From Microthrixaceae bacterium (GTDB lineage: Bacteria; Actinomycetota; Acidimicrobiia; Acidimicrobiales; Poriferisodalaceae): a DNA stretch of 64,000 nt. Shown piece after piece: positions 47,380 to 64,000 of the stretch. Location: the NCBI GenBank assembly GCA_011523825.1, contig WTFX01000017.1:124001-188000 (forward strand), written 5' to 3'. Below the pieces are notes generated by a model that searched no databases, was not told where the DNA came from, and was given only the letters and a program-made list of their open reading frames with translations. Positions within the stretch are counted from its first letter, which is position 1; every line of letters begins with the position of its first letter. The translations under genes and the position numbers were made by a program.

Positions 47380-47958
47380 CTAAGCGGAGCTGGCGGTTTC
47401 GGTGCCGATGGCGGGGATGCCCATGTCTTCGTAGGTGGCCATCGGGAAGTAGGGCACGCCGAGCTTGTCGAAGGAGCGGCGGGCGTCGTCGCCCCGGTCG
47501 GCCAGCGTGACGGCCGCCACCACCTGCGCGCCAGTTGCCTGGACGCTCTCATATGCCTTCAGGATCGAGCCGCCGGTGGTCACCACGTCGTCGATCAGCA
47601 GCACCCGGTGGCCTTCGCCTATCCGGGTGCCCTCGACCAGCCGGTTGGTACCGCGGCCCTTGGCCTCCTTGCGCACGATGAACCAGTTCGCCCCGCTCAC
47701 CACGGCGATAGCAGCGCACAGCGCATCGGCGCCCAGGGTCAGGCCGCCGACGGAGTCGAACTCGACCCCCGCGTCGGTCACTCGCCCGGTGATGGCCTCG
47801 GCGGCAAGCCGCAGGTCATCCCCGGCGCCCAGCGCCACTTTGCCGTCGATGAAATAGCGGGAGTAGTTGCCCGACGCGAGCTGCACCGGTTCGGGCAGCT
47901 CCGTAAGGCCCTGGGTCCGCAGTATTTGCAGCAGCTTCATCCGCGCATCAGTGCTCAT
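47380..47958 (-). CDS. pyrE: Orotate phosphoribosyltransferase
   Basis: 192-residue enzyme of pyrimidine synthesis that joins orotate to PRPP. The PRPP motif VLLIDDVVTTGGS is around residues 115-127, and the catalytic loop is KEAKGRGTNRLVEG. ATG 47958 is used because the N-terminus MSTDARMKLLQIL matches the family; the frame continues upstream for 29 poor codons. It is convergent with SDR 2. The 114 bp between it and the next gene (47959-48072) show no gene. Confidence 0.9.
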   Translation of the reverse strand: MSTDARMKLLQILRTQGLTELPEPVQLASGNYSRYFIDGKVALGAGDDLRLAAEAITGRVTDAGVEFDSVGGLTLGADALCAAIAVVSGANWFIVRKEAKGRGTNRLVEGTRIGEGHRVLLIDDVVTTGGSILKAYESVQATGAQVVAAVTLADRGDDARRSFDKLGVPYFPMATYEDMGIPAIGTETASSA

Positions 47959-48072
47959 CGGGGCCACACAGGACTTTCGGGACTTTGTGCTCGCCTGGGA
48001 TGGCCCAGGACCGCTGCTGGGATTCCTTGGTTGACACGATGGCAATCTCCAGGGTCGTTGTTTCGGGATGCC

Positions 48073-50790
48073 TTAGTCGGACGGCGGCAGCGGTTTGTTG
48101 ATGAACGCCTCGGGTTGCCAGGAGAGCTTGTCATCAGCGGTGCCGGCCGAGTTCACCGTCAGTGTCGCCGTGAAGCCGCCGGCGCCGTAGGCGTCGGACG
48201 TACCGGCTCGCAGCGGATCGAACGGCACGCCCGCTTGGCGCATCGGCGGCGGTTCCTCGTCGCTGACCGCCGGCGACGGCGGTCCGTACACCAGCGATGC
48301 CCACGTGCCCGACGTCAGCACCGTCGCACCGCGAAGGTGCCACACACCAGACTTCAGGACTGCTTCGCCCTGGGCGGACCCGATGAGCGTGCCGCGCTCA
48401 GTGCGGATGTGCCACGTTGCGGTGAACGTGTCGGGCACGCCGTTGGGCGCACTCGACGCCGGCGGTGCTGCGCCCCGGTACAGGTGCAGCACGATGCGGG
48501 TGTCCACGATGGACTCGGCACGCGAGCCGAGCATCGCCCGGTCGGTCACGGCCCCCGTCTGGAACAGCCAGCGGGTGTGGCCGCCCTCGGGCGGGTCGAG
48601 CTCGCTCGGCGTGCCGATGGTGGACGGCTCGTTGGCGTCGATCGGCCCGGTGAGCGAGAAGCGCTGCCCAGTGTCTGCGATGAGCATCAGCGAATCGGTC
48701 GCCGCACCGCTGGGGCCGACACCACGTGCCACCAAGGGTGCAGTCACCACCTCGGCAGGGCCGATGCCCACACAGGCCGGCGCGCCTCGGCCGGCTGATC
48801 GGACAACGCCATCGGAGTCGCCCAGATACCAGCCTTGCTTCGGCACTTCCACGACAGCGCTCGTGCCCTGAGCTTCGGCCACCAGCCAGCGAGCATCGCC
48901 GTAGGTGCCGCGCGGCATGCACATCTGCACCCCGACGTCGTCGTCGCTGTAGTAGATCGGCGACATCGCCATCGTCGTGGCGAACGCACCGACTCCGAAG
49001 TCGACGCTTGGCGTCGCCTGCACGCCGTAGGGCGAGAACGGATCGGGCGTCTGCGCGCCCACAAGCACCGGTGGAATCCGCTCGCCTGCGATCAGATTGC
49101 CCGCCAGTGCAGCGGACACCTCGCCGAGCAAGCTGGGCGTGATCACACCCGCCCCGCCGAATGCCACGGCGAAGCCCGGCGCTGGGCACGCGTCACTGGC
49201 CAGTGCCTTGGCATACGCCACCGGATCGGCCTGGCTCTCGCAGGCCTCGGGCGCGGCGAAGGCGTCGAGCAGGAAGGCGGCCACCGGGTCCGGCAGGCGC
49301 TCTGCACCAGCGGGAACCAGCAGCATGGGCACCGCGCTGCGGGTGGGCCGCTGGGGCATCTCGGCATCAGGCTTCAGCACGGCTGCCGGCTGCGACACAT
49401 CCACTGGCGGCAGCAGCCGTGCCGGGGCACCCATTGACGTAGCGGCCGTCGCCGCTCCGCACCACGGGCCGGCGCTGAGCGCGTCAGCCCAGCCGCGCTG
49501 CTTGCGGCCGCTGTCCGACGACGCCACCAAGCACAGCATCGAGGAAGCGAAGTCGTCACCCGAACCGGTCGGCCACCAGCCGCCGAAGTGCTGGGCCATG
49601 GCCACGCTCGTGGCGTACCTGTCTGCGCCGGAAACCCGGACTGTGTTCGCCCGTGCGAGTCGAGCCGCAGACCGGACGGCCGGCTGCGACAGTCGCTTCA
49701 GGCCGCCGAGCACCACGATGTTCTCGACGTCGAGCAGGCTCAACGCCGTGGCCGTCTCGGTCGGCAGCTCGTCGGTGCCGTTGTGCAGCAGGACTGGCAC
49801 CTGCCAGTAGCCCGTCCACCACCCCGCCGCGATCGCGTCGATGCCGTCGATGCCGTCGGTCAGCACCACGGTGCGGCCGAGCAGGCGGCATTCCTCAGGA
49901 TTCTCCCGCCACTCCACCACCGAATTGGCCCAGAACCCCATGGTGGCGGTCCCATCAGCAGCCGAGGGATCGGCACACCCGGTGGCGCTTTGGGGCACGG
50001 GCGCCGTGCCCAAGGCCGTTGCCACGGCCGCAGCCGTGCCGTAGCGGTTCGCGCCCCCGACACGGAATACCTCCGTGTAGCCGATCGAGACCAGCTCGGC
50101 CTCGACCTCGGGAGCAACGGCGGCGGTGCCGCCGACGATGATCGCCTGCCTCGCCGTCTTGCACCCGCCTGAGCGCAGATCCTGGGCCGCAAGCCGCACG
50201 GGCACGGCGAGCGCCGTCGCGCCGTCGCGGGCTGACGGCGTGAGCAGGATGGGCGCGGCGAACGTGTCGACCCGGGCGAATCCGCCGGGCGGATCGAAGA
50301 GCGGATCCGCCGCAGACGACCGCTGCAGGTACGGCTCGGAGGAACGGCCGGTGGGATCGGACAGCGACGACGCGGCCAAGGCATCTGCAGGCGAATCCCC
50401 GGCGACGATGATGATCGCCTTCGGGCACACGCCGACACCCCACCAGCCCCGTGCCTGGCTCAGGCTGCGCACGCCTCCCGAGGAGGGATCGGGCGTCTCG
50501 AAGGGAAAGCCTCCCTGGCCGCGCAGCACCAAGGCCGTCGCCAGCGAGGTCTGGTAGCGGTCCCAGCCCGAGATGCGCAGTGCGTTGGGCCAGCCTTCGA
50601 TCTGGGGCGCAGCCAGGAACGAACTCGGCCACTGCGTGGGAGCGACCGGGCCTGCGGGCACCGACCTGGGTTCGGCAGCGCCGGCCGACACGCTCACCAG
50701 GACGCCCCCGAACAACAGGAGCACCGCAACGGCGCCGCGCAGCGCGTTTCGTCGAGGCTGCGCCGGGAACTCCCGACGCCGGGGAATCAC
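48073..50790 (-). CDS. Secreted CWB2 protein, divergent 905-residue type
   Basis: 905-residue exported protein with a signal peptide (LRGAVAVLLLFGGVLVSVSAGA) and CWB2-type motifs: RISGWDRYQTSLATA (72-86), IIIVAGDSPADALAASSL, ILLTPSARDGA, AIIVGGTAAVAPEVEAEL, FRVGGANRYGTAAAVA, IVVLGGLKRLSQPAVRSA and VRVSGADRYATSVAMAQ. The modules are split by large inserts, unlike the four related proteins upstream. It has about ten cysteines, suggesting several disulfides. The C-terminal third is unassigned and beta-rich. Its start overlaps the stop of the ECF sigma gene by four bases (ATGA), so the two are co-translated and may be functionally linked. Confidence 0.85.
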   Translation of the reverse strand: MIPRRREFPAQPRRNALRGAVAVLLLFGGVLVSVSAGAAEPRSVPAGPVAPTQWPSSFLAAPQIEGWPNALRISGWDRYQTSLATALVLRGQGGFPFETPDPSSGGVRSLSQARGWWGVGVCPKAIIIVAGDSPADALAASSLSDPTGRSSEPYLQRSSAADPLFDPPGGFARVDTFAAPILLTPSARDGATALAVPVRLAAQDLRSGGCKTARQAIIVGGTAAVAPEVEAELVSIGYTEVFRVGGANRYGTAAAVATALGTAPVPQSATGCADPSAADGTATMGFWANSVVEWRENPEECRLLGRTVVLTDGIDGIDAIAAGWWTGYWQVPVLLHNGTDELPTETATALSLLDVENIVVLGGLKRLSQPAVRSAARLARANTVRVSGADRYATSVAMAQHFGGWWPTGSGDDFASSMLCLVASSDSGRKQRGWADALSAGPWCGAATAATSMGAPARLLPPVDVSQPAAVLKPDAEMPQRPTRSAVPMLLVPAGAERLPDPVAAFLLDAFAAPEACESQADPVAYAKALASDACPAPGFAVAFGGAGVITPSLLGEVSAALAGNLIAGERIPPVLVGAQTPDPFSPYGVQATPSVDFGVGAFATTMAMSPIYYSDDDVGVQMCMPRGTYGDARWLVAEAQGTSAVVEVPKQGWYLGDSDGVVRSAGRGAPACVGIGPAEVVTAPLVARGVGPSGAATDSLMLIADTGQRFSLTGPIDANEPSTIGTPSELDPPEGGHTRWLFQTGAVTDRAMLGSRAESIVDTRIVLHLYRGAAPPASSAPNGVPDTFTATWHIRTERGTLIGSAQGEAVLKSGVWHLRGATVLTSGTWASLVYGPPSPAVSDEEPPPMRQAGVPFDPLRAGTSDAYGAGGFTATLTVNSAGTADDKLSWQPEAFINKPLPPSD

Positions 50791-52394
50791 GGACCGAGCG
50801 TAAGCGTGAGCGACTGCGGTGCGCCGTCATCGGCGAACACCAGCGTGCCCGTCATCGATCCTCGTTCTGCCAACGGCAATGCGTCGCTCTGCGTCGCCGT
50901 GAACAGTCCCTCGAGCGGCAGGGAGCCATCGGCTGCGGTGCCGCGTGCCGCCAAGCGCATCTCGACCTGCTGACCGTCTCCGGCGTCCAGCACCAGCAAT
51001 GCGCTGAACCGCTGCTGCGCGTCGGGATCCGACGGGTCAGCCGCGGACAGCGATGCGCTGCTGGGCGCTGTCACGTTCACCGACTCCGTGGCCGTCGTGA
51101 CATCGGAAGTCGTCACATCGCCGTCCACTGTGGTCGTGGTGGTGGTGACGGTCATGGTGAGCATGCCGCTCACATCGAAGCGATCGGCGCCCGCAGCGGC
51201 AAACGTGAGCTCGCCGCCGTCGATGGACCCTGAGGTCGTCGTTGTCACCGTCGGCTCCGCCGCGATGACGGTCGGCTCGATCTCGTCCGCCTTGTCGACG
51301 TTGGCCGTGGCGGCAGCGCCCGACGCGGCTGGCGTCGCCACGGCGGCGGCTGCGGAAGCATCCTCGCTCGGCGCAGTCGCTGCGTCGACGCCTGCCTCGC
51401 TCGCTGCTGAAGCAGTCACCGGCTCCGCGATCGCCGGTGCCGTATTGGATCTTGCGGCAATGCCTTCGGCACTCGGCAGGGCAGGCACCACGACCGGTGC
51501 GTCAGGTGCCGACGCGCCAACAGCGAACGGCGTCAGCGCCTCCATGACCGAGTCGGGCAGGACCCGGTCGGCCGCCCTGTGCACCGGCGAGTCGACGGTG
51601 GGGGCGATCACTGCGGTCGCCAGCCCGAAGCCGACAGCGGCCTTTGCCACCACAGGCACGCCGACGGTCGCTGCATTCGCCGTCGCAGCGGCCGCACGCG
51701 AGGCCATCGGCGCTGCCTCGGTCAGCATCGGCATCGCCGAGTTCAGCGCAGCACGGCCGGCACCGGGCGAGGACTGGCTCGTCACGGCTGCAGCGGCCCG
51801 CTCTCCCCGGCGCAGCAGCCCGATGAGTGCCACCGGCGCCGTCGCAGCGAGCTTGAGCGCAGCGCGCACTGCGTTGCGGGCACGAGACACCCGCGCCCGG
51901 GCGTTTTCTTCGGACACTCCCGCAACTTGGGCGACTTCTTCGTAAGAAAGCTCCTCAACGAAACGCAGCATCAGCGCTTCGCGGTATTGCTCGGACAGAT
52001 TGTCGATGGCGTCCAGCAGTTCAGTGTCGTCAAGATCGAAGCCCAGCTCGCCTTCGATGCTCGACGGCGGGCTCAGCGCCTTGTCGTTCGATGCGTAGCG
52101 CTCGGTTTTCTCGCCCTCGCGGCGCTGGCGGTTGCCTTCGTCGCTGCAGACGTTGGAGAGGATCCGGTGCAGCCAGGGGCCCACCCGGTAGTTCCCGTTG
52201 AAGCGCGGCATTGCCCGCAGGGCCCGCACCAGCGCTTCCTGGACAGCGTCCTCGGCTGCCTCGGGGCAGCCCAAACGGCGGCGCGCGTGACCGAGCAGCT
52301 GCGGCCGGTACTCACGTACCAGTTCGGCGAACGCTTCGTCGTCGCCGGCCTGGTAGGCAAGGACCAGATCTCGATCTTCAAGTCGCAAAGCCAT
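50787..52394 (-). CDS. ECF sigma factor with membrane segment and long beta-rich C-terminus
   Basis: 535-residue protein. Residues 8-75 form sigma region 2 (LVLAYQAGDDEAFAEL, then AEDAVQEALVRALRAM and WLHRILSNVCSD), and about 127-177 region 4 (LLDAIDNLSEQYREALMLRF, ELSYEEVAQVAGVSEENARARVSRAR). After an Ala-rich link a hydrophobic stretch at 244-266 (VGVPVVAKAAVGFGLATAVIAP) is a likely transmembrane helix, followed by about 270 residues rich in Ala, Thr and Val that end in beta-type sequence (DGGELTFAAAGADRFDVSGMLTM...SGTLVFADD-like). So the sigma part would face the cytoplasm and the tail the outside. Such an ECF protein could be held inactive at the membrane and freed by cleavage. No separate anti-sigma gene is visible. 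Confidence 0.85.
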   Translation of the reverse strand: MALRLEDRDLVLAYQAGDDEAFAELVREYRPQLLGHARRRLGCPEAAEDAVQEALVRALRAMPRFNGNYRVGPWLHRILSNVCSDEGNRQRREGEKTERYASNDKALSPPSSIEGELGFDLDDTELLDAIDNLSEQYREALMLRFVEELSYEEVAQVAGVSEENARARVSRARNAVRAALKLAATAPVALIGLLRRGERAAAAVTSQSSPGAGRAALNSAMPMLTEAAPMASRAAAATANAATVGVPVVAKAAVGFGLATAVIAPTVDSPVHRAADRVLPDSVMEALTPFAVGASAPDAPVVVPALPSAEGIAARSNTAPAIAEPVTASAASEAGVDAATAPSEDASAAAAVATPAASGAAATANVDKADEIEPTVIAAEPTVTTTTSGSIDGGELTFAAAGADRFDVSGMLTMTVTTTTTTVDGDVTTSDVTTATESVNVTAPSSASLSAADPSDPDAQQRFSALLVLDAGDGQQVEMRLAARGTAADGSLPLEGLFTATQSDALPLAERGSMTGTLVFADDGAPQSLTLTLGP

Positions 52395-52510
52395 GGCAAA
52401 AGGGAAGGCGCGGGGCCTTCGATACAGCCGATGCTACCGCACCCCCCTCCGAGCCCTGCCGTCACATTTTGGCTTTGCCAGGAGTTAGCGCGGGGACTCA
52501 GGCAGGGCGG

Positions 52511-54775
52511 TCAGCGACCGTCGAGCGCCTCTCGTTTGAAGGCTGCGCTGTGTGCTTGGCTGGCGTTGCCGGCGAGGTCAAAGGCGGCACCCGCTCGTGC
52601 GATCAGCATCGAGTTGGCCGACGGCAGCATGGCAGCAGAGGGTGCAGCCAGCCGGGCGACGAGCGTGCCGTCCGATTCTCGCCATGACTGGTCGCACGCA
52701 GCGGTGCCCGCACGGGTCCACACGCTGGTATCGGACTCGCCGACAAGGCTGACGCCTGCGTTCGCGGTGCCGGCGCCGTCAAGGGAGTAGTCGGCGAAAC
52801 CGTCACCGTCACTGTCGACCTGCAGCTTGCCGACGTCGATGGTGTGGTCTGCAGGGCCAAGGCCGCAGCCCTGCACCGGTTCGGACCAGTGCACGGTGAC
52901 GTCGACAGCGGCCGAGCCGTCGGCGCGGCGCACCGGCTGGCTCACCGAGACCAGGCTGACTCTGGGCGGGGCGGTGTCAGCGCCGATGGTGTGCGTGACT
53001 GCAGAATTGGCGTTGCCGGCGCGATCGCGCAGCTTGCTGGCAGGGAGCGTGACCCTGTCGCCGGGCGCCAGCCAGGGAGGCTGGGTGAACGGCAGGCTGG
53101 TCGAGCCGTAGCTGTCGTGTTCGGGGAAGTCGAAGCTGACCCGGAAGCCGGTGTCGCCTCGCTGCACGCTGGCGGTCTCGGTCAGGCGGCTGCGTCCTCG
53201 AGTCAAGGTGACGGTGATGGTTCCGTCGGCGAGCGCCTCGTTGGAGCGCACCCAGACCGTCTTGCGGCCTAAGGCTGCGAGCACCTTGAGCTGTGGCCGC
53301 CCGGCATCAGCGCGCACGATCAGCTCCGCGCCTTCGTTGCGGGCGGCTCCGTCGGTCGAGCGAATCGAGCGTTCGTTGACGCCCAGCCGGTCCCGCACAG
53401 CGACCGGTGTCTCGCAGTCGATCGGCACCGACGCGGTGTCATACGGGCTCGCACCTGCCAGCAGGATCACCGCCCACCTCGTTGCGGGTCCTTCGGCAAC
53501 CACGATTTCGGCAAGGCGACCGGGCAGCGGCTCCCCGTCGAAGCGGTAGCTGCCGGTGTCGCCGGCGTCAGCGGTGCGGACCGGCTCGGAGAAGTCGACG
53601 CGCCAGTGGCACGCGCCCTCGGTGGCCGAAATCACCGCAAGGACCGGCGGGCCTTCGCTGAGTCTGCCTGCCGATGCAGCCGAGATGGCCATCGCCTCCA
53701 CACGACTGGACACGGCCGCTCTGCCGCCGAAGACGGTCAGTTCCAGACGGCCTGCGGAATCGCCCGTCACCGCTTCGGACTCAAGCACCGACGCTGCATC
53801 GCGAGACAGTCGCAGGCGCTCGGTGAGGAGCAGCGGATCGCACCGCTCACCCAGCAGCGGTGCACTGGCGATGGCATCAGCGGCACCGAACCCCGCCGCC
53901 ACACCCACGCCGTCACCGTCGAAGCACGGCACCGGTCCCTCAGCACCCAGCAGTTCGACAGCTACGCGGCTCGCCGTGCCATACCGGTCCGCGCCAGCCC
54001 AACGCTCGGTCGAATCGACATGGAGGCGAACCTGGTTCTCGACTCGCGCGGAGACTGCTGCGATGCCTCCCAGGATGATGACGTGGTCGACGCGGTCGTC
54101 CAGGAACTCGGCCACGTCGGGATTCAGCGCTGTGCCGTCGCTGAACAGCAGCGGGAAGCGACCCCGGTAGGCAACCGGTCCGGCCGCCAAGCCGTCGGCG
54201 GCTGCAGCCGCGGTGGCCAGCAGCGCCGTGCGTCCGCGTCCCGCGGCAACCCCGGCAGGGCCCAGGTGGCGCGCGACCGCGAGGGCAGTTGCTGCGCAAT
54301 CCGAGCCCCCCAGCCGCAGCGGTGTCGACCCGGTGAGCCGCCGGATCTGCTCGGCGACCGCCGGTGACACTGCGTCGGTGCCGCCCACGATGAACAGGAC
54401 AGCGAAATCGGCCCCGCTCAGGAACCTGGCCGGCGCGAGCGAGAGGCGATTGGGTTCGGTCAGCAGCACGGGTGCTCGCTGCGCAGACGCCAGCGGGGCG
54501 GCCGAGAGTGCATAGGCCGCATGCTGTTCGGCGCCTGAGGTCACGATCACCGAGTCGGTGTCGCCGCCGATCTCCGCGAGGTAGCGCGCAGCGATCTCCA
54601 CGGCGGTCTCGTAGCGGGTGGGGCCGGCCAGCCGCTCCGCCTCGACCTCGGCAGCAGCGGCGCCGGCGGCGGTGTGGCCGAACGGCAATGAGACGGCCAG
54701 CAGCGCTCCGCACGCCAGCGCAGCGAGTGCTGCTCGGCAGGGTCCCGGCCTCTGGTGGGTTCGTGCTCGCGTCAT
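52511..54775 (-). CDS. Secreted CWB2 surface protein, 754 residues
   Basis: Exported protein with signal peptide (to about 40) and three CWB2 repeats: about 47-145 (RLAGPTRYETAVEIA, VLFIVGGTDAVSPAVAEQI), 153-250 (RLGGSDCAATALAVARH, HVIILGGIAAVSARVE) and 257-362 (RWAGADRYGTASRVAVE, LTVFGGRAAVSSRVEAM). Cys284 and Cys312 are shared by the four paralogs. The tail has a FSEPVRTADAGD domain, LRDRAGNANS and a final domain with the calcium-loop-like DSDGDGFADYSLDG and FDLAGNAS, also seen in the 893-residue protein. Last gene of a tight run with the next two upstream; its ATG lies one base after the previous stop. Confidence 0.87.
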   Translation of the reverse strand: MTRARTHQRPGPCRAALAALACGALLAVSLPFGHTAAGAAAAEVEAERLAGPTRYETAVEIAARYLAEIGGDTDSVIVTSGAEQHAAYALSAAPLASAQRAPVLLTEPNRLSLAPARFLSGADFAVLFIVGGTDAVSPAVAEQIRRLTGSTPLRLGGSDCAATALAVARHLGPAGVAAGRGRTALLATAAAAADGLAAGPVAYRGRFPLLFSDGTALNPDVAEFLDDRVDHVIILGGIAAVSARVENQVRLHVDSTERWAGADRYGTASRVAVELLGAEGPVPCFDGDGVGVAAGFGAADAIASAPLLGERCDPLLLTERLRLSRDAASVLESEAVTGDSAGRLELTVFGGRAAVSSRVEAMAISAASAGRLSEGPPVLAVISATEGACHWRVDFSEPVRTADAGDTGSYRFDGEPLPGRLAEIVVAEGPATRWAVILLAGASPYDTASVPIDCETPVAVRDRLGVNERSIRSTDGAARNEGAELIVRADAGRPQLKVLAALGRKTVWVRSNEALADGTITVTLTRGRSRLTETASVQRGDTGFRVSFDFPEHDSYGSTSLPFTQPPWLAPGDRVTLPASKLRDRAGNANSAVTHTIGADTAPPRVSLVSVSQPVRRADGSAAVDVTVHWSEPVQGCGLGPADHTIDVGKLQVDSDGDGFADYSLDGAGTANAGVSLVGESDTSVWTRAGTAACDQSWRESDGTLVARLAAPSAAMLPSANSMLIARAGAAFDLAGNASQAHSAAFKREALDGR

Positions 54776-54776
54776 G

Positions 54777-57422
54777 TCAGTCCACCGGCACGCTGGAGTC
54801 GTAGCGGATCGACAGCCAGCCTTGAGCAGTGTTGGTTCTCCCGCTGTAGTCCCTCGCGGCGCCGCCGCTGACGAACACCAGGTCGCCCCGTGCAGGCAGC
54901 CGGCTCACACTCGCCGCGTTGAGCGTCATGTGGATCACCTCATCGGGTGCGTCGAAGTGAAGCCTGCAACCGTCGCGGGCCGCGATCAGCCTCGGCACCA
55001 AGTCAGCGACCAACGGGATGCTCGCGCACGCAACGACATCGGCTCCGAGGGGTACTGGAGGATCGGCCGCGTCGAGCAGTGCCGCCACGGGATCGCTGAA
55101 ACGCACTCGCAGACCCGCGGCGGTGCCGCCTCCGGTGAGCTGTACGCCTGCCTGAACGGTGCCGCCGATGGTCCCGCCGGCAGCATCGGCACCCACCACT
55201 TCGACGACGAAGTTGGCAGCAAAGTCTCGGTCATCGCTCAGTGCCTCTGCAAGCTCGGCGAACGTTGGCTCGCCGGCCAGGATCCGGTACGCGATGACGC
55301 GCGTCGTGCGATTCACCAGCACGCTGATGCACTCCTCGTCCGGATCGGAGCAGTCGACGCTCTCGGCGTCGGAGTCATCGTCGGTCTCGGGCAATCCGAC
55401 GCCGTACACGCGCCAATCGTTGCCGCGACCACCCGATGCGAATCCGTCGCTGCGTGCAGTGATAGTGAGCGCTCCGCTCGGCGTGGCATCGAGCTGGGTG
55501 CCCGCGCTGAGCGTCACCCTGGCTTGATTGGTGGAATCCACATCGCCGACCGTGACGGTCTCGATGCGGAAGTCGACGCTCGGCTCAGCCACGACGTGAC
55601 GATGCCGGGGACTGGCGCGGCCGTCCTCGTCCAGGAAAGCGCCCCGCGACACGGTGACGGCATCGCCCTCCTCCAGCATCGCGCCGTCCAGGGCGAACAC
55701 ATAGCGCTGATGCTTGGCTCGCGTGCCGGCGGCACCCGGACTCGGGCCGGCAGGTGCCGGGTCGAGATCCAGAGGCTTGCGCGTGCCGTCGCCAGCCACG
55801 ACAGCGATGCGCTCCGCAACCTCAGCAGGCGTCAGCACGGCGGGCTCGTACGGGTGCTCCTCGATCACCAGCACCGCGAACCGGTCGTGCCCGGCTGGGG
55901 CGATGATGCGGACCTCGGGGGCGTCCAGGTCGGCAGGCTCATCGGGCTCGGGAATGACCAAGGAGAAGCGGGCCGTCGGCCGGGGGCTGTTGTTGGTGCC
56001 GATGCGCTGCCCGCCGGTCACGGCGACCACGTCCTCGGCTTCGAGAACCCGGTGATCTCGATCCAGCGTCACGGTCACGCTCTTGCCGCGGACGCGCACG
56101 CTTGCGCACCACTCATCGGGATCGGCAGGCGAAGCAGTACACAGGCCCGACGACGCTGCGCGCACCGGTTCGGAGTTGACGCTGAACATCCTCACGTCCG
56201 GCTCCAGCGCACGAGCGGCCTTCTTGGAGTCGATGTCGCTCGTGAAGGTGACCGTGAACTGGTGGGCCCTCTCGGTGTCGGGATCGAGCTCGACGCTGAT
56301 GCGCCCGCCGATCGGCACCAGCGTGGTGGCCCGCTCCAAGAACTGCATCACCACCTCGTCCGGCACCGCGGCGGTGCCGCCGAACACCGTGACGTCCAGG
56401 TCGTTGTGGGCATCGCCGGTCACGTACTCATCCGAGCGCAGGAACGACGCCACAGTGCGCGGCAGCGTGTCGGCAGGGGTGAGCAGCAGCGGTGCGCACT
56501 GTTCGCCGAGCAATGGCCCGCTGGCGATCGCATCCGGCGAGAGCCTGCCGTAGGCCAGGCCCAGCTCGGTGCCGTCAAAACACGGCCGCAGCGGGTCGTC
56601 ACGGTCGAGCATGGTCTCGGCCAGCTCGACTGCGGTGCCGTAGCGGTCGTTCCCGGCAATGCGGGCAGTCGTGAAGTCCAAGCCCGACAGCGCCCGTTGC
56701 ACGGCGCTGCCCACCGCAGCGGTGCCGCCCACGATGATCACGTGATCGATGTCGCTCGCCACCAAATGGTCGAACACGGCTGAGTGCAGGCCGCCCGGGG
56801 GCGTCAACAGGATCGGATAGCGGCCCTGGTAGGCCATCGGCCCTGCCGCCAGTGCATCCGCGAACGCACCGCTGGTGGCGAGCAGCGCCGTGCGGCCCTT
56901 GGACCCGAATTCCCCAGCGGGAAGACCGAATGACTTCGCCACCTCGATCGCGTGCAGGTGGACGTCGTCGCTGCCGAGGCGTTCCACCGTTCCCACGCCG
57001 AGGTTGCCGAGTTCACGCTCGACCGCGCTCGAGATCACCGCAGTGCCGCCGAGCAGGATCACCCTGCGGATGGCTCGGCGCTGCAGGAACTGCTTCACCG
57101 GCACCGGCACGTCGTCGGGTCGGGTGAACACCAGCGGTGCCCGCTCCAAACGGGACAGCATCGGCACCGGCACCGTCCAGCCGGCGTGTCGGTCGAGGCC
57201 CGATCCCAATATGACCGTGTCCACCCGAGGCTCGTCGGGGCGTTCGTCGACGCGGTCCATGTAGCTCTCGGCGATCTGCACCGACGTCGAGTAGCGCGTC
57301 GGTCCGGCAAGGCGCGTGAACTCGATGTCGATCACGGCCGCCCCCGCCGCGAGGTGAGGCAGAGTCCACAACGGCAGCGCAAGCACTGCCGCCAACACGG
57401 CCCGCAGCCACCGGCGGCTCAT
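54777..57422 (-). CDS. Secreted CWB2 surface protein, 881 residues
   Basis: Exported protein with signal peptide (LRAVLAAVLALPLWTLP..AAGA) and three CWB2 repeats (about 37-139, 147-245, 254-361; cues RLAGPTRYSTSVQIA, VILLGGTAVISSAVERE, HVIIVGGTAAVGSAVQ, RIAGNDRYGTAVELA, VTVFGGTAAVPDEVV). The paired cysteines are 281 and 309. Then an Ig-like domain (HQFTVTFTSDIDS), a region with an EPDEPADLDAPEVRII start, and a module at 651-778 with GNDWRVYGVG and FAELAEALSDDRDFAANF shared with two paralogs. Overlaps the preceding 945-residue gene by four bases (ATGA). Confidence 0.87.
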   Translation of the reverse strand: MSRRWLRAVLAAVLALPLWTLPHLAAGAAVIDIEFTRLAGPTRYSTSVQIAESYMDRVDERPDEPRVDTVILGSGLDRHAGWTVPVPMLSRLERAPLVFTRPDDVPVPVKQFLQRRAIRRVILLGGTAVISSAVERELGNLGVGTVERLGSDDVHLHAIEVAKSFGLPAGEFGSKGRTALLATSGAFADALAAGPMAYQGRYPILLTPPGGLHSAVFDHLVASDIDHVIIVGGTAAVGSAVQRALSGLDFTTARIAGNDRYGTAVELAETMLDRDDPLRPCFDGTELGLAYGRLSPDAIASGPLLGEQCAPLLLTPADTLPRTVASFLRSDEYVTGDAHNDLDVTVFGGTAAVPDEVVMQFLERATTLVPIGGRISVELDPDTERAHQFTVTFTSDIDSKKAARALEPDVRMFSVNSEPVRAASSGLCTASPADPDEWCASVRVRGKSVTVTLDRDHRVLEAEDVVAVTGGQRIGTNNSPRPTARFSLVIPEPDEPADLDAPEVRIIAPAGHDRFAVLVIEEHPYEPAVLTPAEVAERIAVVAGDGTRKPLDLDPAPAGPSPGAAGTRAKHQRYVFALDGAMLEEGDAVTVSRGAFLDEDGRASPRHRHVVAEPSVDFRIETVTVGDVDSTNQARVTLSAGTQLDATPSGALTITARSDGFASGGRGNDWRVYGVGLPETDDDSDAESVDCSDPDEECISVLVNRTTRVIAYRILAGEPTFAELAEALSDDRDFAANFVVEVVGADAAGGTIGGTVQAGVQLTGGGTAAGLRVRFSDPVAALLDAADPPVPLGADVVACASIPLVADLVPRLIAARDGCRLHFDAPDEVIHMTLNAASVSRLPARGDLVFVSGGAARDYSGRTNTAQGWLSIRYDSSVPVD

Positions 57423-60256
57423 GGGGTGCCCCCGCTGCAGGCGGCACCGGCGGCATCAGCGACGGAATTGGTTCCCTGCGGGCTCAACGCTTCTCGCGCG
57501 TAGCCGAATTGGGAGGGAATCGCTGGATCCGAGCGCAGATGGAACCGACGCTGACGCAGGTTCTGCACATCAGGGGTCTCGTCCTCGTTCTGGTCACCGT
57601 GGCCCGCGGCGACTCCCATGGGGACCAACACCGGGGTGCCGGCCCGCGGTACCAGTGCGTCGTCGGTGGCTCGGTACTCCAGGTACACCACATCGCCACG
57701 GCGCTGGCACCGGACTGCGACACGGTCATCGTCGGCGTCGGATTCGCCGAGGAAGAGCGACGCGAACGTCAACGGCGCCCTGAAGCCCGCCGGTGCCGCT
57801 GCGGCGCTGCCGAAGAGCGACACGTAACGAGCATCAGGCGCCGTGTCGGCGTCTGGCGCTGCGGGGACGCTTCGTACGTGGTCAGAGAACTGGACGCGCA
57901 AGCCGACGATGCTGATGCCGCCGACCAGCGAGCCACCGGCAGGGTCTGCGATGCCGAGCACGCCGTTCGTCGCGGACGAGGTGACGACCCGGCTGCTGAA
58001 GTGTCGCTTGAACTCGGCATCGGCATTGAGTGCGGCCGACAGGTTCGCAAGCGTGATCTTGCCGTCGGCGATCGTGTAGCTGATGATCCGGTGCACCGGG
58101 TCGACGCCGACCTCGATCTCGCTGTCCGCCGGTTCGGTCCGGTCTGGGGCGACGTAGGGGTAGACGAGCCAGCCGTTGCCCGCTGCAACGCTGGTGCTGC
58201 GGGCAGTGATCCTCACACGCCGACTGCCCTCACAGGCGGCATCCCCGCTCGCACCGCACGTGTTGTTGCGGATCAGCAACGTTGCCTGCTTGGCGTGCCT
58301 GGGCTTGCCGACCGCTGCCCGTCGGACCGTGAAGTCGCCGTGGTCGGCGTTGTCGGCGTGCTCGCGGACCGTATAGCGAGTCAGCTTGTTGGGATTGTTC
58401 CGCTGGTCGTACAAGGCTCCCCTCGCAACGGTGATCACATCGCCGGGCTCAAGCTGCGCGTCGGCGCCGGAGAGCGCTGCGGTGTAGCGAATGTTCGCTC
58501 CGAGCGTGGCAGGGTCCTCATAGCACCGCTCGCCGATCTTGTCGCCCAAGGGCGTATCGCTCTCGGACTTGTGCGGGCAGTCGACCGAGCTGGCGACAAA
58601 CGTCACTGCTCGCGCTTGGCCGTCCTTGTCGACCACCGTGAGCTCGTGCCGTTCCTGGCCGCGGTGCATCACGTCGTTGCGCAGGCGATCGCCCCGCCGC
58701 AGCGCGCGCTCGGTGACCACCACGACCAACTTCTGCTCACCGGCGATCCCCACGATCTGGATCTGCGGTCCGACCGTGTCGGTCACCGTCGGAGGTCGCG
58801 GCACCCGGTAGAACACCGACTCCAGCGCGGGCAGCGTGTCGTCGACCGCGATCTCGGTACGCCCCTCATCGGTGCCGGTCTCGCCCAGCACCGTGATGGT
58901 GTTGCCGACCGCCAGCGGCTCGACCAGTTCCACCGTCACCGCTCGGCCGCTCAGGCTGATCTGGGCATAGCGCCTGGCATTTTCCGGGGCCGTTGTGTCA
59001 GCTTCGAGTGCCAGCGGCTGGTTGTTCACCGTGTAGCGCTCGGCCTTGACGGCCTCGTCTTCCTTCACGTCCTCGTTGAAGGTCACCGTGAACACCTTCG
59101 AACCGCCAACGGCCGACACTTCCGCAGTGAACGGCGCGCCGCGCAGCGCCCGATTCCGCACCGCCCACACCGTCGACTCTGCAACCGCCGCGGCCCCGCC
59201 GAACACCACCACCTCCAACCGGCTCGCCGGCCCGCCCAGCAGATCGCCGCCGGTCAGCACCTCGTCCAGCTCCGTCGGCACCGCTCTCGATCGGGTCAGC
59301 AACAGCGGCGCGCATCGCTCTCCCAGCAGCGGCCCGCTGCTCACCGCGTCGGGTGCCCGCTCGCCTACCGCGAGCCCGATCACCGACCCGTCGAAGCATC
59401 GATCCGGTCGAGCTGAGCCCAGCAGCCGCCGCGCCACCACCGCCGCCGTCTCGTAGCGATCAGCGCCCGCCAAGCGCGAGGTGGTGATGCCCTTGGCCTT
59501 CACCGCCGACTCCACCGCCGAGCTCACTGCGGCCGTGCCGCCGAAGATCACCACGTGCTCGACATCGCTGCGATCCAGGTACACCGACACGGCGTGATCC
59601 GGCCTGCCCGCCGGGGTCAGCAGCAGCGGATGGGCACCGTGATACGACAGCGGGCCAGCTACCAGCGCATCGGCCACGCTCACACCGTTCGCGAGCAAGG
59701 CGGTACGACCGCGGGAGCCCCACTCACCCGCCGAACCTGGGATCGGACCGACTGCCGCCGTCACGGCAACCGACGTGGCGTAGACGTCATTCCCCCACAA
59801 GCGCCGCACGCTGCCCACGTGGCCAGCAAGCTCGCTCACGACAGCGGTCGAAACGATGTCGGGGCCGCCGACCACCAGCACCAGCTCGATGTCGTTGACG
59901 TCCAGGAAACTGCGCACGCCGTCGTGCAGCCGATCAGACGGCGTCAGCAGAATCGGGGCGTCGAATGCCGATGCCAGCCCCGCAGCGGGCATGCCGTAGG
60001 CAGCGTGACGGTCCTCGCCCGACACCACGATGGCCGCGCTCGTCGACGCGCGGTCTGGATTGTCCGAGATCTCTGCCAGGTACGCCTCTGCGACCGCCAC
60101 CGATGTCTCGTACCGATCCAGGCCCCCGAACCGCTCAGCCGATGTCTCATTCACCGCCGCAGACGCTCCCGACCCGACGAGCAGCGACGCGGCAGCCGCC
60201 GCCGCTACAAGAGCGGCAATCGCTCTGCGAGAGGGCCTTCGGGCGGCTGTCGGCAT
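57419..60256 (-). CDS. Secreted CWB2 surface protein, 945 residues
   Basis: Exported protein: signal peptide to about 33 (AIAALVAAAAAASLLVGSGASA), three CWB2 repeats at about 42-145, 149-255 and 260-365 (RFGGLDRYETSVAVA, LVLVVGGPDIVSTAV; RLWGNDVYATSVAV, HVVIFGGTAAVSSAV; RLAGADRYETAAVVA, VVVFGGAAAVAEST). Cys287 and Cys315 match the other paralogs. After an Ig-like domain (KVFTVTFNEDVKED) follow further beta domains, a module at 681-794 (GNGWLVYPYV, LANLSAALNADAEFKRHF) shared with two paralogs, and a tail with DQNEDETPD. First gene of a three-gene run after a 143-bp gap with an inverted repeat. Confidence 0.87.
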   Translation of the reverse strand: MPTAARRPSRRAIAALVAAAAAASLLVGSGASAAVNETSAERFGGLDRYETSVAVAEAYLAEISDNPDRASTSAAIVVSGEDRHAAYGMPAAGLASAFDAPILLTPSDRLHDGVRSFLDVNDIELVLVVGGPDIVSTAVVSELAGHVGSVRRLWGNDVYATSVAVTAAVGPIPGSAGEWGSRGRTALLANGVSVADALVAGPLSYHGAHPLLLTPAGRPDHAVSVYLDRSDVEHVVIFGGTAAVSSAVESAVKAKGITTSRLAGADRYETAAVVARRLLGSARPDRCFDGSVIGLAVGERAPDAVSSGPLLGERCAPLLLTRSRAVPTELDEVLTGGDLLGGPASRLEVVVFGGAAAVAESTVWAVRNRALRGAPFTAEVSAVGGSKVFTVTFNEDVKEDEAVKAERYTVNNQPLALEADTTAPENARRYAQISLSGRAVTVELVEPLAVGNTITVLGETGTDEGRTEIAVDDTLPALESVFYRVPRPPTVTDTVGPQIQIVGIAGEQKLVVVVTERALRRGDRLRNDVMHRGQERHELTVVDKDGQARAVTFVASSVDCPHKSESDTPLGDKIGERCYEDPATLGANIRYTAALSGADAQLEPGDVITVARGALYDQRNNPNKLTRYTVREHADNADHGDFTVRRAAVGKPRHAKQATLLIRNNTCGASGDAACEGSRRVRITARSTSVAAGNGWLVYPYVAPDRTEPADSEIEVGVDPVHRIISYTIADGKITLANLSAALNADAEFKRHFSSRVVTSSATNGVLGIADPAGGSLVGGISIVGLRVQFSDHVRSVPAAPDADTAPDARYVSLFGSAAAAPAGFRAPLTFASLFLGESDADDDRVAVRCQRRGDVVYLEYRATDDALVPRAGTPVLVPMGVAAGHGDQNEDETPDVQNLRQRRFHLRSDPAIPSQFGYAREALSPQGTNSVADAAGAACSGGTP

Positions 60257-60324
60257 GGTCGCCGTGACGGTATGTCAGCCTCTCGTGCGCGTCTAGCCCC
60301 TAAGTAGTACTGGCAATAATCTTG

Positions 60325-60338
60325 GCGTTCTGGAACGC
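60325..60338. promoter_or_regulatory. Inverted repeat upstream of the three-gene CWB2 run
   Basis: GCGTTC and GAACGC flank TG, a perfect 6-2-6 palindrome 69 bp upstream of the 945-residue gene start in the 60257-60399 gap. On the minus strand TTGCCA-like and TACTTA-like promoter elements lie between it and the gene. An operator is more likely than a terminator, since no T-run follows. Confidence 0.4.
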
Positions 60339-60399
60339 GCCGATTGTCGGCAGCCACCCCTATGGCGAAGCCGATGCCGCAGCCGACGAAGCGGCCGCG

Positions 60400-63081
60400 T
60401 CAGGGACGCTCGAGGCGGACGCCGGTCTGGCGCGCGTTGGCATTGCCCGCCAAGTCGGTCACCGCGCCCGACCGCACGAACGCAGTCGACCGTGTGCTGG
60501 GCAGGCTGTCGATGCTTCCCGACTGAATCCGTGCCACGAGTGTCCCCGGACGCACTCCCGGCGTCGTGGTGTCGCAGGTGGCCCTGCCCGCGATGATGGA
60601 GTCGCCGCCGTCGCCGTCGACGAATTCGACGTCGCTGGCGCCGAACGTGAAGCCGTCGAGATCGAAGTCGGTGGTGCCGTTGCCGTCGGCATCGATCTCG
60701 ATCAGGCGCACCCGCACCGGATCGTCGTTGGCGGTGTCGCAGTCCTGCACCGCCTCGGTCCAGTGCACGGTGAGATCGGCCGTGCTGGCGCCGCCCATCA
60801 ACCGCTCACGCCCGCCGGTGTCGACCGGCGAGTCGGTGCCGCTGCCCGTCACCCTGGCGACGAACAGCTGGTTGAACGTCCTGTTGGCATTCAGGGCATC
60901 GACCACGTCGTCGACGTCTGCGGTGTCCACAGCGGTCGCGAGCGCCATGACCTGGATGCGCCGGGTCACAGCAGACACCTGCACCGCCGTCACCTGCGAG
61001 GCAGACCAGCTGCTCGGGCGGCTGCTGCGCACGTCGAGATCGATGGTCCAGTGGTTGCCGGCTGCGCCGTCTGCCGCCGTCGCGGCTTTCGCCTCGATGC
61101 GGAACGCCTCTTGAGAGTTGTCGTTGGTGTCGGTCCCGTTCAGGACTGCCGAGGCCTGTGACACCGGCTCGGGCTCGGTCACGGTGATGCGGCTGATGCG
61201 GGGCGTCGTGGTGTCACGCACCACGACGCTCGAGACGGCCGCATTGGCATTGCCTGCAAGATCACGCACCTCATCGGCAGCGATCGACACACTGTCGCCG
61301 ATCTTGAGACTGGTGCCGAACGCATTCGGAAGCTCGACTTCGAACCTGGTGACGCCGGCCGCAGGAGTAACGTCGACCGTCGCATCGGAGATGCCGGGGC
61401 GCTTGAACACGACGGCAACCACGCCGTCGGTGTCCCTGGCCGACTCCACCAGCGGCTCGCTGGCTTCCACCCACACCGTGTCGCTGCCCTCGGTGGCGTT
61501 CATGGTCAGGGTGGGCGGCGTCTCGTCATCGGCCACGAAGAACTCGACTCGGGCGACGCGCCGATTGTCTGCCGCTGCCCGGATCTCACCGCCCACGATG
61601 CCGATGCGGTCGCGGGCTCGCAGCGGCGTCGTGCAGCCGGTGGGCACCGTCGCACCGGAGTTGGTGGTCGCGCCCTCCAGCGTCACCACTGCCTTGGTGG
61701 TGCTCGTGCCGCTGCCGGCGTCGGGCGTGCCCTCCACCTCGTCGGCTTCGAAGGGCGAGTTGCCGTACAGGTACACGGTGAGGTCTTCGGCATCGGCGGT
61801 GCGCACCGGTTCTGCGAAGGTGACCGTGAAATGGCAGCCGCCCTCGAACGCCTCCAGCGTCGCTCCCAACGCCACGAGCGCCGCCGCGTCCGTGGCCTCA
61901 TCGACGGCCCGGTTCGACACCGCCGCGGTGCCGCCGAACACGGTGAAGCGCAGCTTGCCGTTGGCGTCGCCGGTCACATAGTCGTCGGACTCCAGGAATC
62001 TCTCAGCCACCGAGGGCAGGGTGTCGCGCTCGGTTAGCAGCAGCGCCGCGCACAGCTCGCCGAGCAGCGGCCCGCTCACGATCGCATCGGGTGAGCGCCA
62101 GCCGTAGGCAAGACCGATGTCGCCGCTGCCGTCGAAGCACTCCTGCGGCGTGTCGAAGCCCAGCAGCGCCTCGGCGATGTCCACCGCCGTGCCGAAGCGG
62201 TCCGAGCCCCTCCACCGTTCCACAGTGATGCCGAGACGCTCCACTTCGCTCTCGACACCGGCGCTCACAGCCGCAGTGCCGCCCAGGACGACCACGTGCT
62301 CGGTACGGCTGCCGCTCAGGAATGTCGACACGGCAGCGGGCAGCTCCGAGCTGCGGGTCAGCAGGATCGGGTGCTCGCCCCGGTACGCCAGCGGCCCGAC
62401 GGCCAGTGCGTCGGCGAAGGCCTCGCCCGTGGCCAGCAACGCCGTGCGGCCCTTGCCGCGAATCTCGCCCGGACTGCCCGGCGACCATCCGACCGAGCCG
62501 GCTATGGCCACGGCGGTCGCGTACTCGTCGTCGCCGTCGATGCGGTTCACCGAGATGCCGCTGATGGCGGTGATGGAACGCTCGACGGCCTCGGACACCA
62601 CGCTCGTGCCCCCGACGATGAGCACCAGTGAGACGTTGTGACGGGTGAGGAACGTGGTCACCGATTCATGCAGTTCATCGGAGGGCGTCAGCAGCAGCGG
62701 GGCATCGTGGAGCCGCGACAGCGCCGGTGTCGGCAGCGCGTAGGCGAAGTGCCGGTCCTCACCCGACGTGATGATGACGGTGTCGATAGCGGAACGGCTC
62801 GCATCGCTCTCGACGTGGTCCACGTACGTCTCGGCGATCTCGACAGCGGTCTCGTAGCGCGTGCTGCCGCTGAGCCGCCTGCTGTCGACTTCGGCAGCAG
62901 CGCCCTGCGCAGGACTGTGCCCCGCGACCAGCGCCGTGGCCGCGACGGCAAGGGCCATCAGCGCCCGCCCCAGTCTCCTGCGACGTCGGGTTCGGGGTGC
63001 GCGCACAGCGCGCTCAGCCGATTGGCTGAGAGCACGGCGAGCCGGGTCAAACAGAGGGGAGATGTTCATGTGCGACTTCAT
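60400..63081 (-). CDS. Secreted CWB2 surface protein, 893 residues
   Basis: Exported protein with a long basic N-region (RTRRRRRLGRALMALAV, signal to about 60) and three CWB2 repeats at about 68-170, 178-280 and 287-393 (RLSGSTRYETAVEIA, LVLIVGGTSVVSEAVE; RIDGDDEYATAVAIA, HVVVLGGTAAVSAGVE; RWRGSDRFGTAVDIA, FTVFGGTAAVSNRAV). Cys315 and Cys344 are the conserved pair. The tail holds an Ig-like domain (CHFTVTFAEPVRTADAED), a domain ending VRDLAGNANAA, a shared module at 660-778 (GNHWTIDLDV, DVVDALNANRTFNQLF) and a last domain with DADGNGTTDFDLDG and VTDLAGNANA. GGAG stands six bases before ATG 63081; a second ATG lies four codons on. Confidence 0.87.
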   Translation of the reverse strand: MKSHMNISPLFDPARRALSQSAERAVRAPRTRRRRRLGRALMALAVAATALVAGHSPAQGAAAEVDSRRLSGSTRYETAVEIAETYVDHVESDASRSAIDTVIITSGEDRHFAYALPTPALSRLHDAPLLLTPSDELHESVTTFLTRHNVSLVLIVGGTSVVSEAVERSITAISGISVNRIDGDDEYATAVAIAGSVGWSPGSPGEIRGKGRTALLATGEAFADALAVGPLAYRGEHPILLTRSSELPAAVSTFLSGSRTEHVVVLGGTAAVSAGVESEVERLGITVERWRGSDRFGTAVDIAEALLGFDTPQECFDGSGDIGLAYGWRSPDAIVSGPLLGELCAALLLTERDTLPSVAERFLESDDYVTGDANGKLRFTVFGGTAAVSNRAVDEATDAAALVALGATLEAFEGGCHFTVTFAEPVRTADAEDLTVYLYGNSPFEADEVEGTPDAGSGTSTTKAVVTLEGATTNSGATVPTGCTTPLRARDRIGIVGGEIRAAADNRRVARVEFFVADDETPPTLTMNATEGSDTVWVEASEPLVESARDTDGVVAVVFKRPGISDATVDVTPAAGVTRFEVELPNAFGTSLKIGDSVSIAADEVRDLAGNANAAVSSVVVRDTTTPRISRITVTEPEPVSQASAVLNGTDTNDNSQEAFRIEAKAATAADGAAGNHWTIDLDVRSSRPSSWSASQVTAVQVSAVTRRIQVMALATAVDTADVDDVVDALNANRTFNQLFVARVTGSGTDSPVDTGGRERLMGGASTADLTVHWTEAVQDCDTANDDPVRVRLIEIDADGNGTTDFDLDGFTFGASDVEFVDGDGGDSIIAGRATCDTTTPGVRPGTLVARIQSGSIDSLPSTRSTAFVRSGAVTDLAGNANARQTGVRLERP

Positions 63082-63088
63082 GTGCGAC
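63065..63088. repeat. Perfect 12-bp tandem repeat carrying two start codons
   Basis: TTCATGTGCGAC occurs twice without a gap. On the minus strand it contains two in-frame ATG codons (63081 and 63069) for the 893-residue protein. The ribosome site serves the first. Confidence 0.6.
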
Positions 63089-63155
63089 TCCTACGAACTC
63101 TAAATGCGAGCCCGCTGGACACTACACATGCCACATGCATAACTTTGAGTGATTT
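63089..63155. other. AT-rich gap between metalloprotease and CWB2 genes
   Basis: This 67-bp gap is much richer in A and T than its surroundings and includes CACATGC twice in tandem (63125-63138) and a TTTTTATTG run. It likely holds the end of the protease transcript and the promoter of the 893-residue gene. The sharp composition change marks it as regulatory rather than coding. Confidence 0.4.
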
Positions 63156-64000
63156 TTATTGTTTCTGAATTGACACCGTATGGGTGTCGCCGTCGTCGTC
63201 CGTGACCGTGATGGTGTAGCCGTGCAGCGTCACCGAGTCGCCGGGCCCCAGCACCGGGAAGTCATCGACTTGGAGGTCGCCGCTGTCGCCCGCGACCCGC
63301 AGCGGCAACTGGCCCGAGCCGCGCAGGCTGTCAACGGTGTACACCAGCACCCCCTCGGTGATCAGCCGGGGAAACGTAGTTGTGGCGCCGGAATCGGTCG
63401 CTTCGAAGAAGCGACCGGCGTCATAGCCAAGCTTGCGCCGACTCTCGATCACGATCATCTCCCGCGCATTGAGCGGTATCGCCGCCATCGCTGTGCCATC
63501 GCCGGGTGCCGCAACCGGCGAGAGCGTCACAGTCGTGTCCTCGCCGTGCGCTGCGTCGCTGATACAGCTCACCTGCGCATCACTGAGCCACCCGAGCTGC
63601 CAGCGGCTCCAGGCCAGCATTTCCTCGATGCGCAGGTGACGCCGGTAGGCCGTCGAGACGCCGCCGTCGGGATACTCCCAGTCGTGGGCCAGCCGACGGT
63701 CGTTCTCATCGACCAGGAAGTACGCCCACATATTCATGCGGCCCCACTCCGATGCGATCCACCATCTGCCCTCGGGAGCTTCACGATCAGCGAACACCTG
63801 GCCGTACGAGTACAGGTCGGCGAGGCCGAGAGAGTGGCTGAGTTCGTGCGCGGCGATCGATCCCCACTGATGGGGCGCGCTGTCCGCACCGAGATAGACG
63901 CTGTTGATGAGCGACGACGGCCACGTGCCGTCAGCGGCGGAGACGGACGGGTGGGCGAATCCGCCGCCGCCGAAGTGGTCGCTCGCCAGGACGACCATGA
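63156..64000 (-). CDS. M6-like zinc metalloprotease, N-terminus beyond window
   Basis: At least 280 residues of a secreted-type metalloprotease; the 5' end lies past the window edge. The zinc motif HELSH within AAHELSHSLGLADLYSY is followed by a glycine/aspartate stretch and by a conserved-looking MNMWAYFLVDENDRR and WSRWQLGWLSDAQ, as in M6 (immune inhibitor A-like) enzymes, where a similar region follows the zinc site. A C-terminal beta domain (PRLITEGVLVYTVDSLRG, then VTVTDDDGDTH) follows. Codirectional with the CWB2 genes, so it may process or modify them or act on the host surface. Family assignment beyond zincin is moderate. Confidence 0.68.
   Translation of the reverse strand, partial: MVVLASDHFGGGGFAHPSVSAADGTWPSSLINSVYLGADSAPHQWGSIAAHELSHSLGLADLYSYGQVFADREAPEGRWWIASEWGRMNMWAYFLVDENDRRLAHDWEYPDGGVSTAYRRHLRIEEMLAWSRWQLGWLSDAQVSCISDAAHGEDTTVTLSPVAAPGDGTAMAAIPLNAREMIVIESRRKLGYDAGRFFEATDSGATTTFPRLITEGVLVYTVDSLRGSGQLPLRVAGDSGDLQVDDFPVLGPGDSVTLHGYTITVTDDDGDTHTVSIQKQ

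What the first reader, a model, noticed from the sequence alone, without database searches (positions are those of the whole stretch)
48073..64000. Surface-protein island: five CWB2 proteins with a tethered sigma factor and a metalloprotease
All genes lie on one strand in tight order: protease, CWB2-893, CWB2-945/881/754 (4-bp overlap and 1-bp gap), then the sigma factor overlapping CWB2-905. The four related proteins each have three CWB2 repeats, as in Clostridioides difficile wall proteins, joined to varied Ig-like tails. A co-encoded sigma factor suggests a self-contained envelope module. This is the best candidate for an undescribed system here.
Basis: partly seen in the sequence, partly recalled or inferred. 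Interest (0 to 1): 0.75.

Follow-up and report, generated by a model that had tools for sequence, protein, structure and literature searches.

The report
Sigma factor paired with wall protein
In a group of mostly uncultured actinobacteria, a gene-switching protein (an ECF sigma factor carrying an extra barrel-shaped domain) is encoded overlapping the gene of one particular wall-anchored surface protein, and the pair is kept together across several bacterial families, which suggests a little-known way for a cell to read the state of its own coat.

Summary
The genes are real and correctly placed, but the island is not one module. The conserved unit is two genes: an ECF sigma factor (50787-52394) and the CWB2 protein it overlaps (48073-50790). 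All 14 order genomes with this CWB2 type also carry the sigma (23 of 397 do); in most, the CWB2 gene directly follows it, nine times with a 4-bp GTGA/ATGA overlap, across Acidimicrobiia families. In one relative this is the genome's only CWB2 protein, and a congener lacking the sigma has none. The sigma ends in a predicted eight-stranded barrel (AbyU/DUF3237/dirigent kind); the partner has a triple-CWB2 core like C. difficile SlpA/Cwp6/Cwp8, an FN3-like domain and a C-terminal barrel of the same fold. The other four CWB2 paralogs and the "metalloprotease" (itself a CWB2 protein cut by the window edge) form a lineage-specific array running to the contig end. The conserved promoter-like element sits only before the sigma gene, so sigma control of the paralogs is unsupported. 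Membrane tethering is plausible but unproven. Best reading: an envelope-sensing sigma with a dedicated surface-protein partner, a new variant of non-canonical ECF signalling. The partnership is well supported; the mechanism is inferred.

The parts
50787..52394 (-). ECF sigma factor gene, 535 aa, with C-terminal extension
   Evidence: Pfam Sigma70_r2 2.1e-17, r4_2 1e-14; homologs in 23 of 397 order genomes
51600..51869 (-). two conserved hydrophobic segments of the sigma (residues 176-197 and 246-265), candidate membrane span
   Evidence: alignments; approximate insertion energies about +0.4 to +1.2 and +2.2 to +2.5 kcal/mol in the genus: inconclusive
50790..51251 (-). C-terminal eight-stranded beta-barrel domain of the sigma (residues 382-535)
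   Evidence: AlphaFold2 pLDDT about 87 over this part; VIA Z 11.1 to 3g7g, 10.2 to DUF3237 protein 9m2y
52431..52468 (-). conserved promoter-like element AATGTGACGG-N18-GCGGTAGCAT upstream of the sigma gene
   Evidence: present before sigma in 10 genus genomes (spacing differs in G007); single site in the whole genome at up to 3 mismatches
48073..50790 (-). CWB2-905, the sigma's partner surface protein (signal-peptide-like N terminus, eight conserved Cys)
   Evidence: family alignments; co-occurs 14/14 with the sigma
50787..50790 (-). 4-bp overlap GTGA of sigma stop and CWB2-905 start
   Evidence: same GTGA/ATGA overlap in G005, G006, G007, G022, L122, L125, L126, L130
49084..50652 (-). triple-CWB2 core of CWB2-905 (residues 47-569)
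   Evidence: Z 33.4 to C. difficile SlpH 7acy_B, 32.3 to Cwp6, 31.5 to Cwp8
48673..49077 (-). FN3/Ig-like domain of CWB2-905 (residues 572-706)
   Evidence: weak: Z about 6 to SiiE and fibronectin domains
48091..48669 (-). C-terminal barrel of CWB2-905 (residues 708-900), same fold class as the sigma's barrel
   Evidence: Z 11.7 to PloI4, 10.8 to AbyU; profile score 25.4 against the sigma barrel versus 12-18 for other slices and at most 17.3 in 150 column shuffles
52511..54775 (-). CWB2-754, paralog with three CWB2 repeats
   Evidence: same order 945-881-754-sigma-905 in G005 and G006
54777..57422 (-). CWB2-881 paralog
57419..60256 (-). CWB2-945 paralog
60400..63081 (-). CWB2-893 paralog, preceded by its own conserved 74-bp intergenic region
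63156..64000 (-). 3' end of a CWB2 + PD40 propeller + M6-like metalloprotease gene that continues past the window (L010:157-3600)
   Evidence: TIGR03296 1.4e-12 on the window part; CWB2 x3 and PD40 on the full ORF; HELSHSLGLAD motif read in the sequence

Best explanation
The heart of the island is a two-gene envelope-signalling unit. An ECF sigma factor whose own C-terminal extension (hydrophobic segments, Pro/Thr/Ala-rich linker, probably extracytoplasmic beta-barrel) replaces an anti-sigma factor is co-translated with a dedicated surface protein that grips the wall through a triple CWB2 core and ends in a barrel of the same fold. I propose that the surface protein, through its barrel, is the extracytoplasmic partner that keeps the sigma at the membrane or reports wall/coat occupancy; loss or change of that contact frees the sigma (by release or proteolysis) to transcribe its targets. 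Shown here: architecture, conserved gene pair, co-occurrence, shared predicted fold. Inferred: the membrane span, the barrel-barrel contact, release, and targets. The remaining CWB2 genes are a lineage-specific array that this sigma is not shown to control.
For: Conservation: sigma and CWB2-905 orthologs lie in the same 12 of 61 relatives; 14 of 14 CWB2-905 genomes have the sigma among 397 order genomes. Direct sigma-to-905 order in G000, G005-G007, G022 and further lineages L119/G279, L120, L122, L124-L127, L129-L131, G219; GTGA/ATGA overlap in nine loci. Minimal case: G022's only CWB2 hits lie in the sigma's neighbour; congener G014 has neither sigma nor CWB2. In a one-genome-per-family sample all 5 sigma-bearing genomes have CWB2, against 11 of 59 overall (hypergeometric 9e-5); 21 of 23 sigma-bearing genomes have CWB2. 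Structure: sigma barrel; partner model pLDDT 81, triple CWB2 Z 33, barrel Z 11.7; barrel profiles resemble each other above most controls. Distances of the two families correlate (r 0.64, Mantel p 0.0005; not corrected for species phylogeny). One site-2 protease gene (PF02163) exists in the genome.
Against: Neither hydrophobic segment scores as a clear membrane span; two spans would put the barrel inside the cell, none would make the protein soluble. The profile match of the two barrels is weak in absolute terms (probability 11-15%), and one control (CWB2-754 tail against the 905 barrel) reached a score of 25.0. No target promoter was found; the sigma's promoter-like element occurs once in the genome. 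In six genus-mates the partner gene is not the next gene: 1.4-13 kb away in G001, G003, G004, G010, on another contig in G002 and G008. Two sigma-bearing genomes (G242, G280) have no CWB2.
Confidence: 0.5

Rival explanations
1. Simple autoregulated operon: the sigma senses something unrelated through its own barrel and merely transcribes its co-operonic surface-protein gene; the CWB2 protein is output, not sensor.
For: Co-transcription is implied by the 4-bp overlap and a single conserved promoter-like element before sigma. The barrel fold is shared with small-molecule-binding proteins such as AbyU and PloI4.
Against: Does not by itself explain why the partner also carries a barrel of the same fold, nor the strict dependence of CWB2-905 on the sigma (14/14).
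Confidence: 0.27
2. One reading: the sigma is the dedicated regulator of the whole CWB2 array, a self-contained envelope module including paralogs and protease.
For: The sigma sits inside CWB2 arrays in the genus; in several lineages a further three-repeat CWB2 gene follows the pair.
Against: The promoter-like element is absent before every CWB2 gene in about 330 kb of genus loci and elsewhere in the genome; the paralogs differ between genus-mates; CWB2-rich genomes without the sigma exist; G022 has the pair and no other CWB2 gene.
Confidence: 0.13
3. Hitch-hiking: the sigma is a generic ECF factor caught in a recombining array, and the neighbourhood has no functional meaning.
For: Arrays do rearrange (G001-G004, G008, G010); some relatives of the sigma stand in genomes without CWB2 (G242, G280).
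Against: Conserved direct order and overlap across several families with different flanking genes; the minimal pair in G022.
Confidence: 0.06

Closest known systems
[quoted passage not shown] ECF48/52/53, e.g. SCO4117), reviewed in PMC8999054
   Same: Sigma and its regulator in one polypeptide, candidate membrane span, Pro-rich linker and extracytoplasmic domain (ECF52 has a carbohydrate-binding domain)
   Different: No zinc-finger anti-sigma motif: no Cys follows C83 of the sigma. The extension is a barrel not matched by Pfam, and a dedicated CWB2 protein is co-encoded; the section of the review that was read names no CWB2 partner.
ECF41/ECF42/ECF56 extensions (SnoaL, TPR), same review
   Same: C-terminal extension replaces an anti-sigma factor; ECF42 has a conserved neighbour protein proposed as regulatory partner
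   Different: Those extensions are not membrane-linked; here the linker composition points outside the membrane, and the partner is a secreted wall protein.
C. difficile CWB2 proteins SlpA, Cwp6, Cwp8
   Same: Triple-CWB2 core, Z 31-33, sequence hits E 1e-19 to 2e-8
   Different: Actinobacterial, eight conserved cysteines, FN3-like plus barrel C terminus, and co-encoded with a sigma factor.
Allene oxide cyclase/AbyU/DUF3237/dirigent barrels
   Same: Predicted eight-stranded barrel at the C terminus of both proteins
   Different: About 10% identity; no enzymatic role inferred; here fused to a sigma factor and to a wall-binding protein.

Membership tests
ECF sigma factor | Sigma-70 regions 2 and 4 without region 3 | tested here: met
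   Pfam r2 25-92, r4 125-174; TIGR02937 8.6e-30; fold matches sigmaE/AlgU/SigH
ECF48/52/53 (membrane-fused) | Zinc-finger anti-sigma motif in the extension | tested here: not met
   No Cys after residue 83 of the window protein; the C-terminal domain hits no Pfam family
ECF48/52/53 and IutY | One or two transmembrane helices in the extension | tested here: inconclusive
   Two conserved weakly hydrophobic segments, approximate insertion energy mostly +0.4 to +2.5 kcal/mol
IutY-type regulated release | Proteolytic release of the sigma part | not testable with these tools
   One PF02163 site-2 protease gene in the genome only makes it possible
CWB2 surface proteins | Three CWB2 modules forming a pseudo-trimer | tested here: met
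   CWB2-905 model residues 68-569 on SlpH 7acy_B, Z 33.4, rmsd 2.8; three Pfam repeats in each of the four paralogs
CWB2 surface proteins | Binding to an anionic wall polymer | not testable with these tools
   needs wall-binding assays
S-layer SlpA (NF033435) | Full-length SlpA match above the curated cut-off | tested here: not met
   scores 24-68 against cut-off 650
AOC/AbyU/DUF3237-like barrel | Eight-stranded antiparallel barrel | tested here: met
   predicted models only; sigma Z 11.1, partner Z 11.7
AOC/AbyU/DUF3237-like barrel | Sequence homology to the known enzymes | tested here: inconclusive
   no Pfam hit; identity about 10%
Known ECF classification group | Assignment to a numbered group | not tested
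   the group models were not available

The most novel reading that the evidence does not exclude
A direct wall-to-RNA-polymerase switch: a sigma factor and a wall-anchored surface protein carry homologous barrels that pair across the cell envelope, so that the occupancy of the cell's coat is read with no anti-sigma factor and no separate sensor kinase.
Probability: 0.22. Interest if true: 0.82.

Novelty: new variant of a known kind. Interest (0 to 1): 0.58.

Why it matters
How bacteria with CWB2-anchored coats sense and regulate them is largely open. Here a sigma factor is tied by gene order, co-occurrence and possibly a shared domain to one CWB2 protein across Acidimicrobiia families, and one relative keeps only this pair. 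That gives a minimal, testable system for coat sensing and a new architecture for non-canonical ECF signalling. The literature searched gave no description of it.

Tried and rejected
Upstream regions of displaced 905 genes and of following CWB2 genes gave no convincing common motif. RNA families: none in 43000-64000. Whole-length profile comparison of sigma and 905 found nothing; only domain-level comparison did. A clear membrane span was not shown. Paralog tails as carriers of the sigma barrel: not supported (scores 11-16). ECF group assignment and distribution beyond the sampled genomes were not tested.

Full report
What is there. The window is bases 124001-188000 of contig C25 of a 3.3-Mb draft genome. 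Its closest named relatives are Acidimicrobiia metagenome assemblies. Between 48073 and 64000 all the genes described are on the minus strand: in transcription order a protease end, CWB2-893, 945, 881, 754, the sigma and CWB2-905. Pfam confirms CWB2 and sigma regions 2 and 4. The genome holds 62 CWB2 repeats but only four sigma-70 region 2 hits.

The contig runs about 18 kb past the window and is full of further CWB2 genes. The protease is the end of an approx. 1147-aa protein that itself carries three CWB2 repeats and a PD40 propeller. The run is broken by gaps of 74, 143 and 116 bp.

The conserved unit is sigma + CWB2-905. In 61 relatives the two proteins occur in the same 12 genomes. In 397 order genomes 23 have the sigma and 14 have the CWB2-905 type, all 14 within the 23. 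Maps of the loci show CWB2-905 directly after the sigma in G000, G005, G006, G007, G022, G279 (L119), G094 (L127), G165 (L131), G315 (L129), G219, and in L120, L122, L124, L125, L126 and L130; in G049 one CWB2 gene lies between. Nine of these have a 4-bp GTGA or ATGA overlap (L122 read from the junction printed there). In six genus-mates the partner is 1.4-13 kb away in the same array or on another contig. G022 has no CWB2 outside this gene, and its congener G014 has neither. CWB2 is rare in the order (11 of 59 one-per-family genomes), and all five sigma-bearing members of that sample have it (hypergeometric 9e-5, computed; one genome per family limits but does not remove phylogenetic dependence). 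Conversely three CWB2-rich genomes (G061, G073, G083) lack the sigma at the threshold used, so the sigma is not a general CWB2 regulator.

Anatomy. The sigma is regions 2 and 4, two weakly hydrophobic conserved segments, an Ala/Pro/Thr-rich linker and a C-terminal domain. AlphaFold2 gives an eight-stranded barrel at 382-534 with local pLDDT about 87, while the rest is modelled less well; solved relatives by fold are DUF3237, AbyU, PloI4, dirigent and allene oxide cyclase barrels, best Z 11.1. The membrane span is not secure (the insertion-energy parameters were written from memory, so treat the values as approximate). An outside location of the barrel is inferred from linker composition. CWB2-905 (model pLDDT 81, pTM 0.81) is a triple-CWB2 core (Z 33 to C. 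difficile SlpH, 32 to Cwp6, 31.5 to Cwp8), an FN3-like domain (Z about 6) and a barrel (Z 11.7 to PloI4, 10.8 to AbyU). Thus both proteins end in a barrel of the same fold class, with many PDB neighbours in common. The barrel profiles score 23.9-25.4 against each other, against 12-18 for other slices of 905 and at most 17.3 in 150 column shuffles, but the probability is only 11-15%, and an unrelated control reached 25.0, so homology of the barrels is a suggestion, not a result.

Regulation. Ten genus genomes share AATGTGAC(G/A)G and GCGGTAGCATC upstream of the sigma, at a fixed spacing in nine. The element occurs once in the genome and before none of the CWB2 genes scanned. The sigma-905 pair therefore seems to have its own promoter region; control of the paralogs is unsupported. 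Whether the sigma drives its own promoter is unknown.

How it most likely works. The sigma carries its own regulator and is co-translated with a wall-anchored partner. I propose that the partner's barrel contacts the sigma's barrel and reports wall or coat state, freeing the sigma by release or proteolysis. Gene pairing, co-occurrence, domain layout and predicted folds are shown; contact, membrane span, release and targets are inferred. The main rival, an autoregulated operon with the surface protein as output only, is not excluded.

Comparison. Non-canonical ECF factors with extensions are known (PMC8999054): IutY and ECF48/52/53 are the nearest in mechanism, but the zinc-finger feature is not met here, the extension is a different fold, and a dedicated CWB2 partner is not described there. 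Literature searches gave no description of a sigma-CWB2 pair; the library lacks most subscription papers, so novelty is provisional. I file it as a new variant of a known kind.

Noticed in passing
L010:5716-9135: A second CWB2 + PD40 propeller gene of the island is split into two ORFs (489 and 648 aa), apparently a frame break from mutation or assembly; its parts match CWB2 x3 and PD40.
   Followed up: partly
L010:3576-5719: Two plus-strand genes inside the island: one with a PHPDDE motif like PIG-L/LmbE deacetylases (no Pfam hit at E 0.01), one HGSNAT-like acyltransferase (PF07786 1.2e-4); a similar pair lies near the array in G005 (L099). Possible wall-glycan editing genes.
   Followed up: partly
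L122, L125, L126: Records labelled Acidobacteria (UBA9620), Gammaproteobacteria (SAT18) and Pelagibacterales (SP94) carry this Acidimicrobiia-type pair, L125 and L126 with flanks like those of L124 (Acidimicrobiaceae); probably misbinned or mislabelled contigs.
   Followed up: no
window 47380-48045: A phosphoribosyltransferase gene (pyrE-like) beside CWB2-905 lies inside the CWB2 array in G003 and G004 (L046, L095), so it travels with the locus.
   Followed up: no
G000 whole genome: Only four sigma-70 region 2 hits in a 3.3-Mb actinobacterial genome, yet one of them is this sigma.
   Followed up: no
window 63082-63155: The intergenic region before CWB2-893 is strongly conserved with G005 (ATGTGGCATGTGTAGTGTCC), a different motif from the sigma's upstream element.
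   Followed up: no
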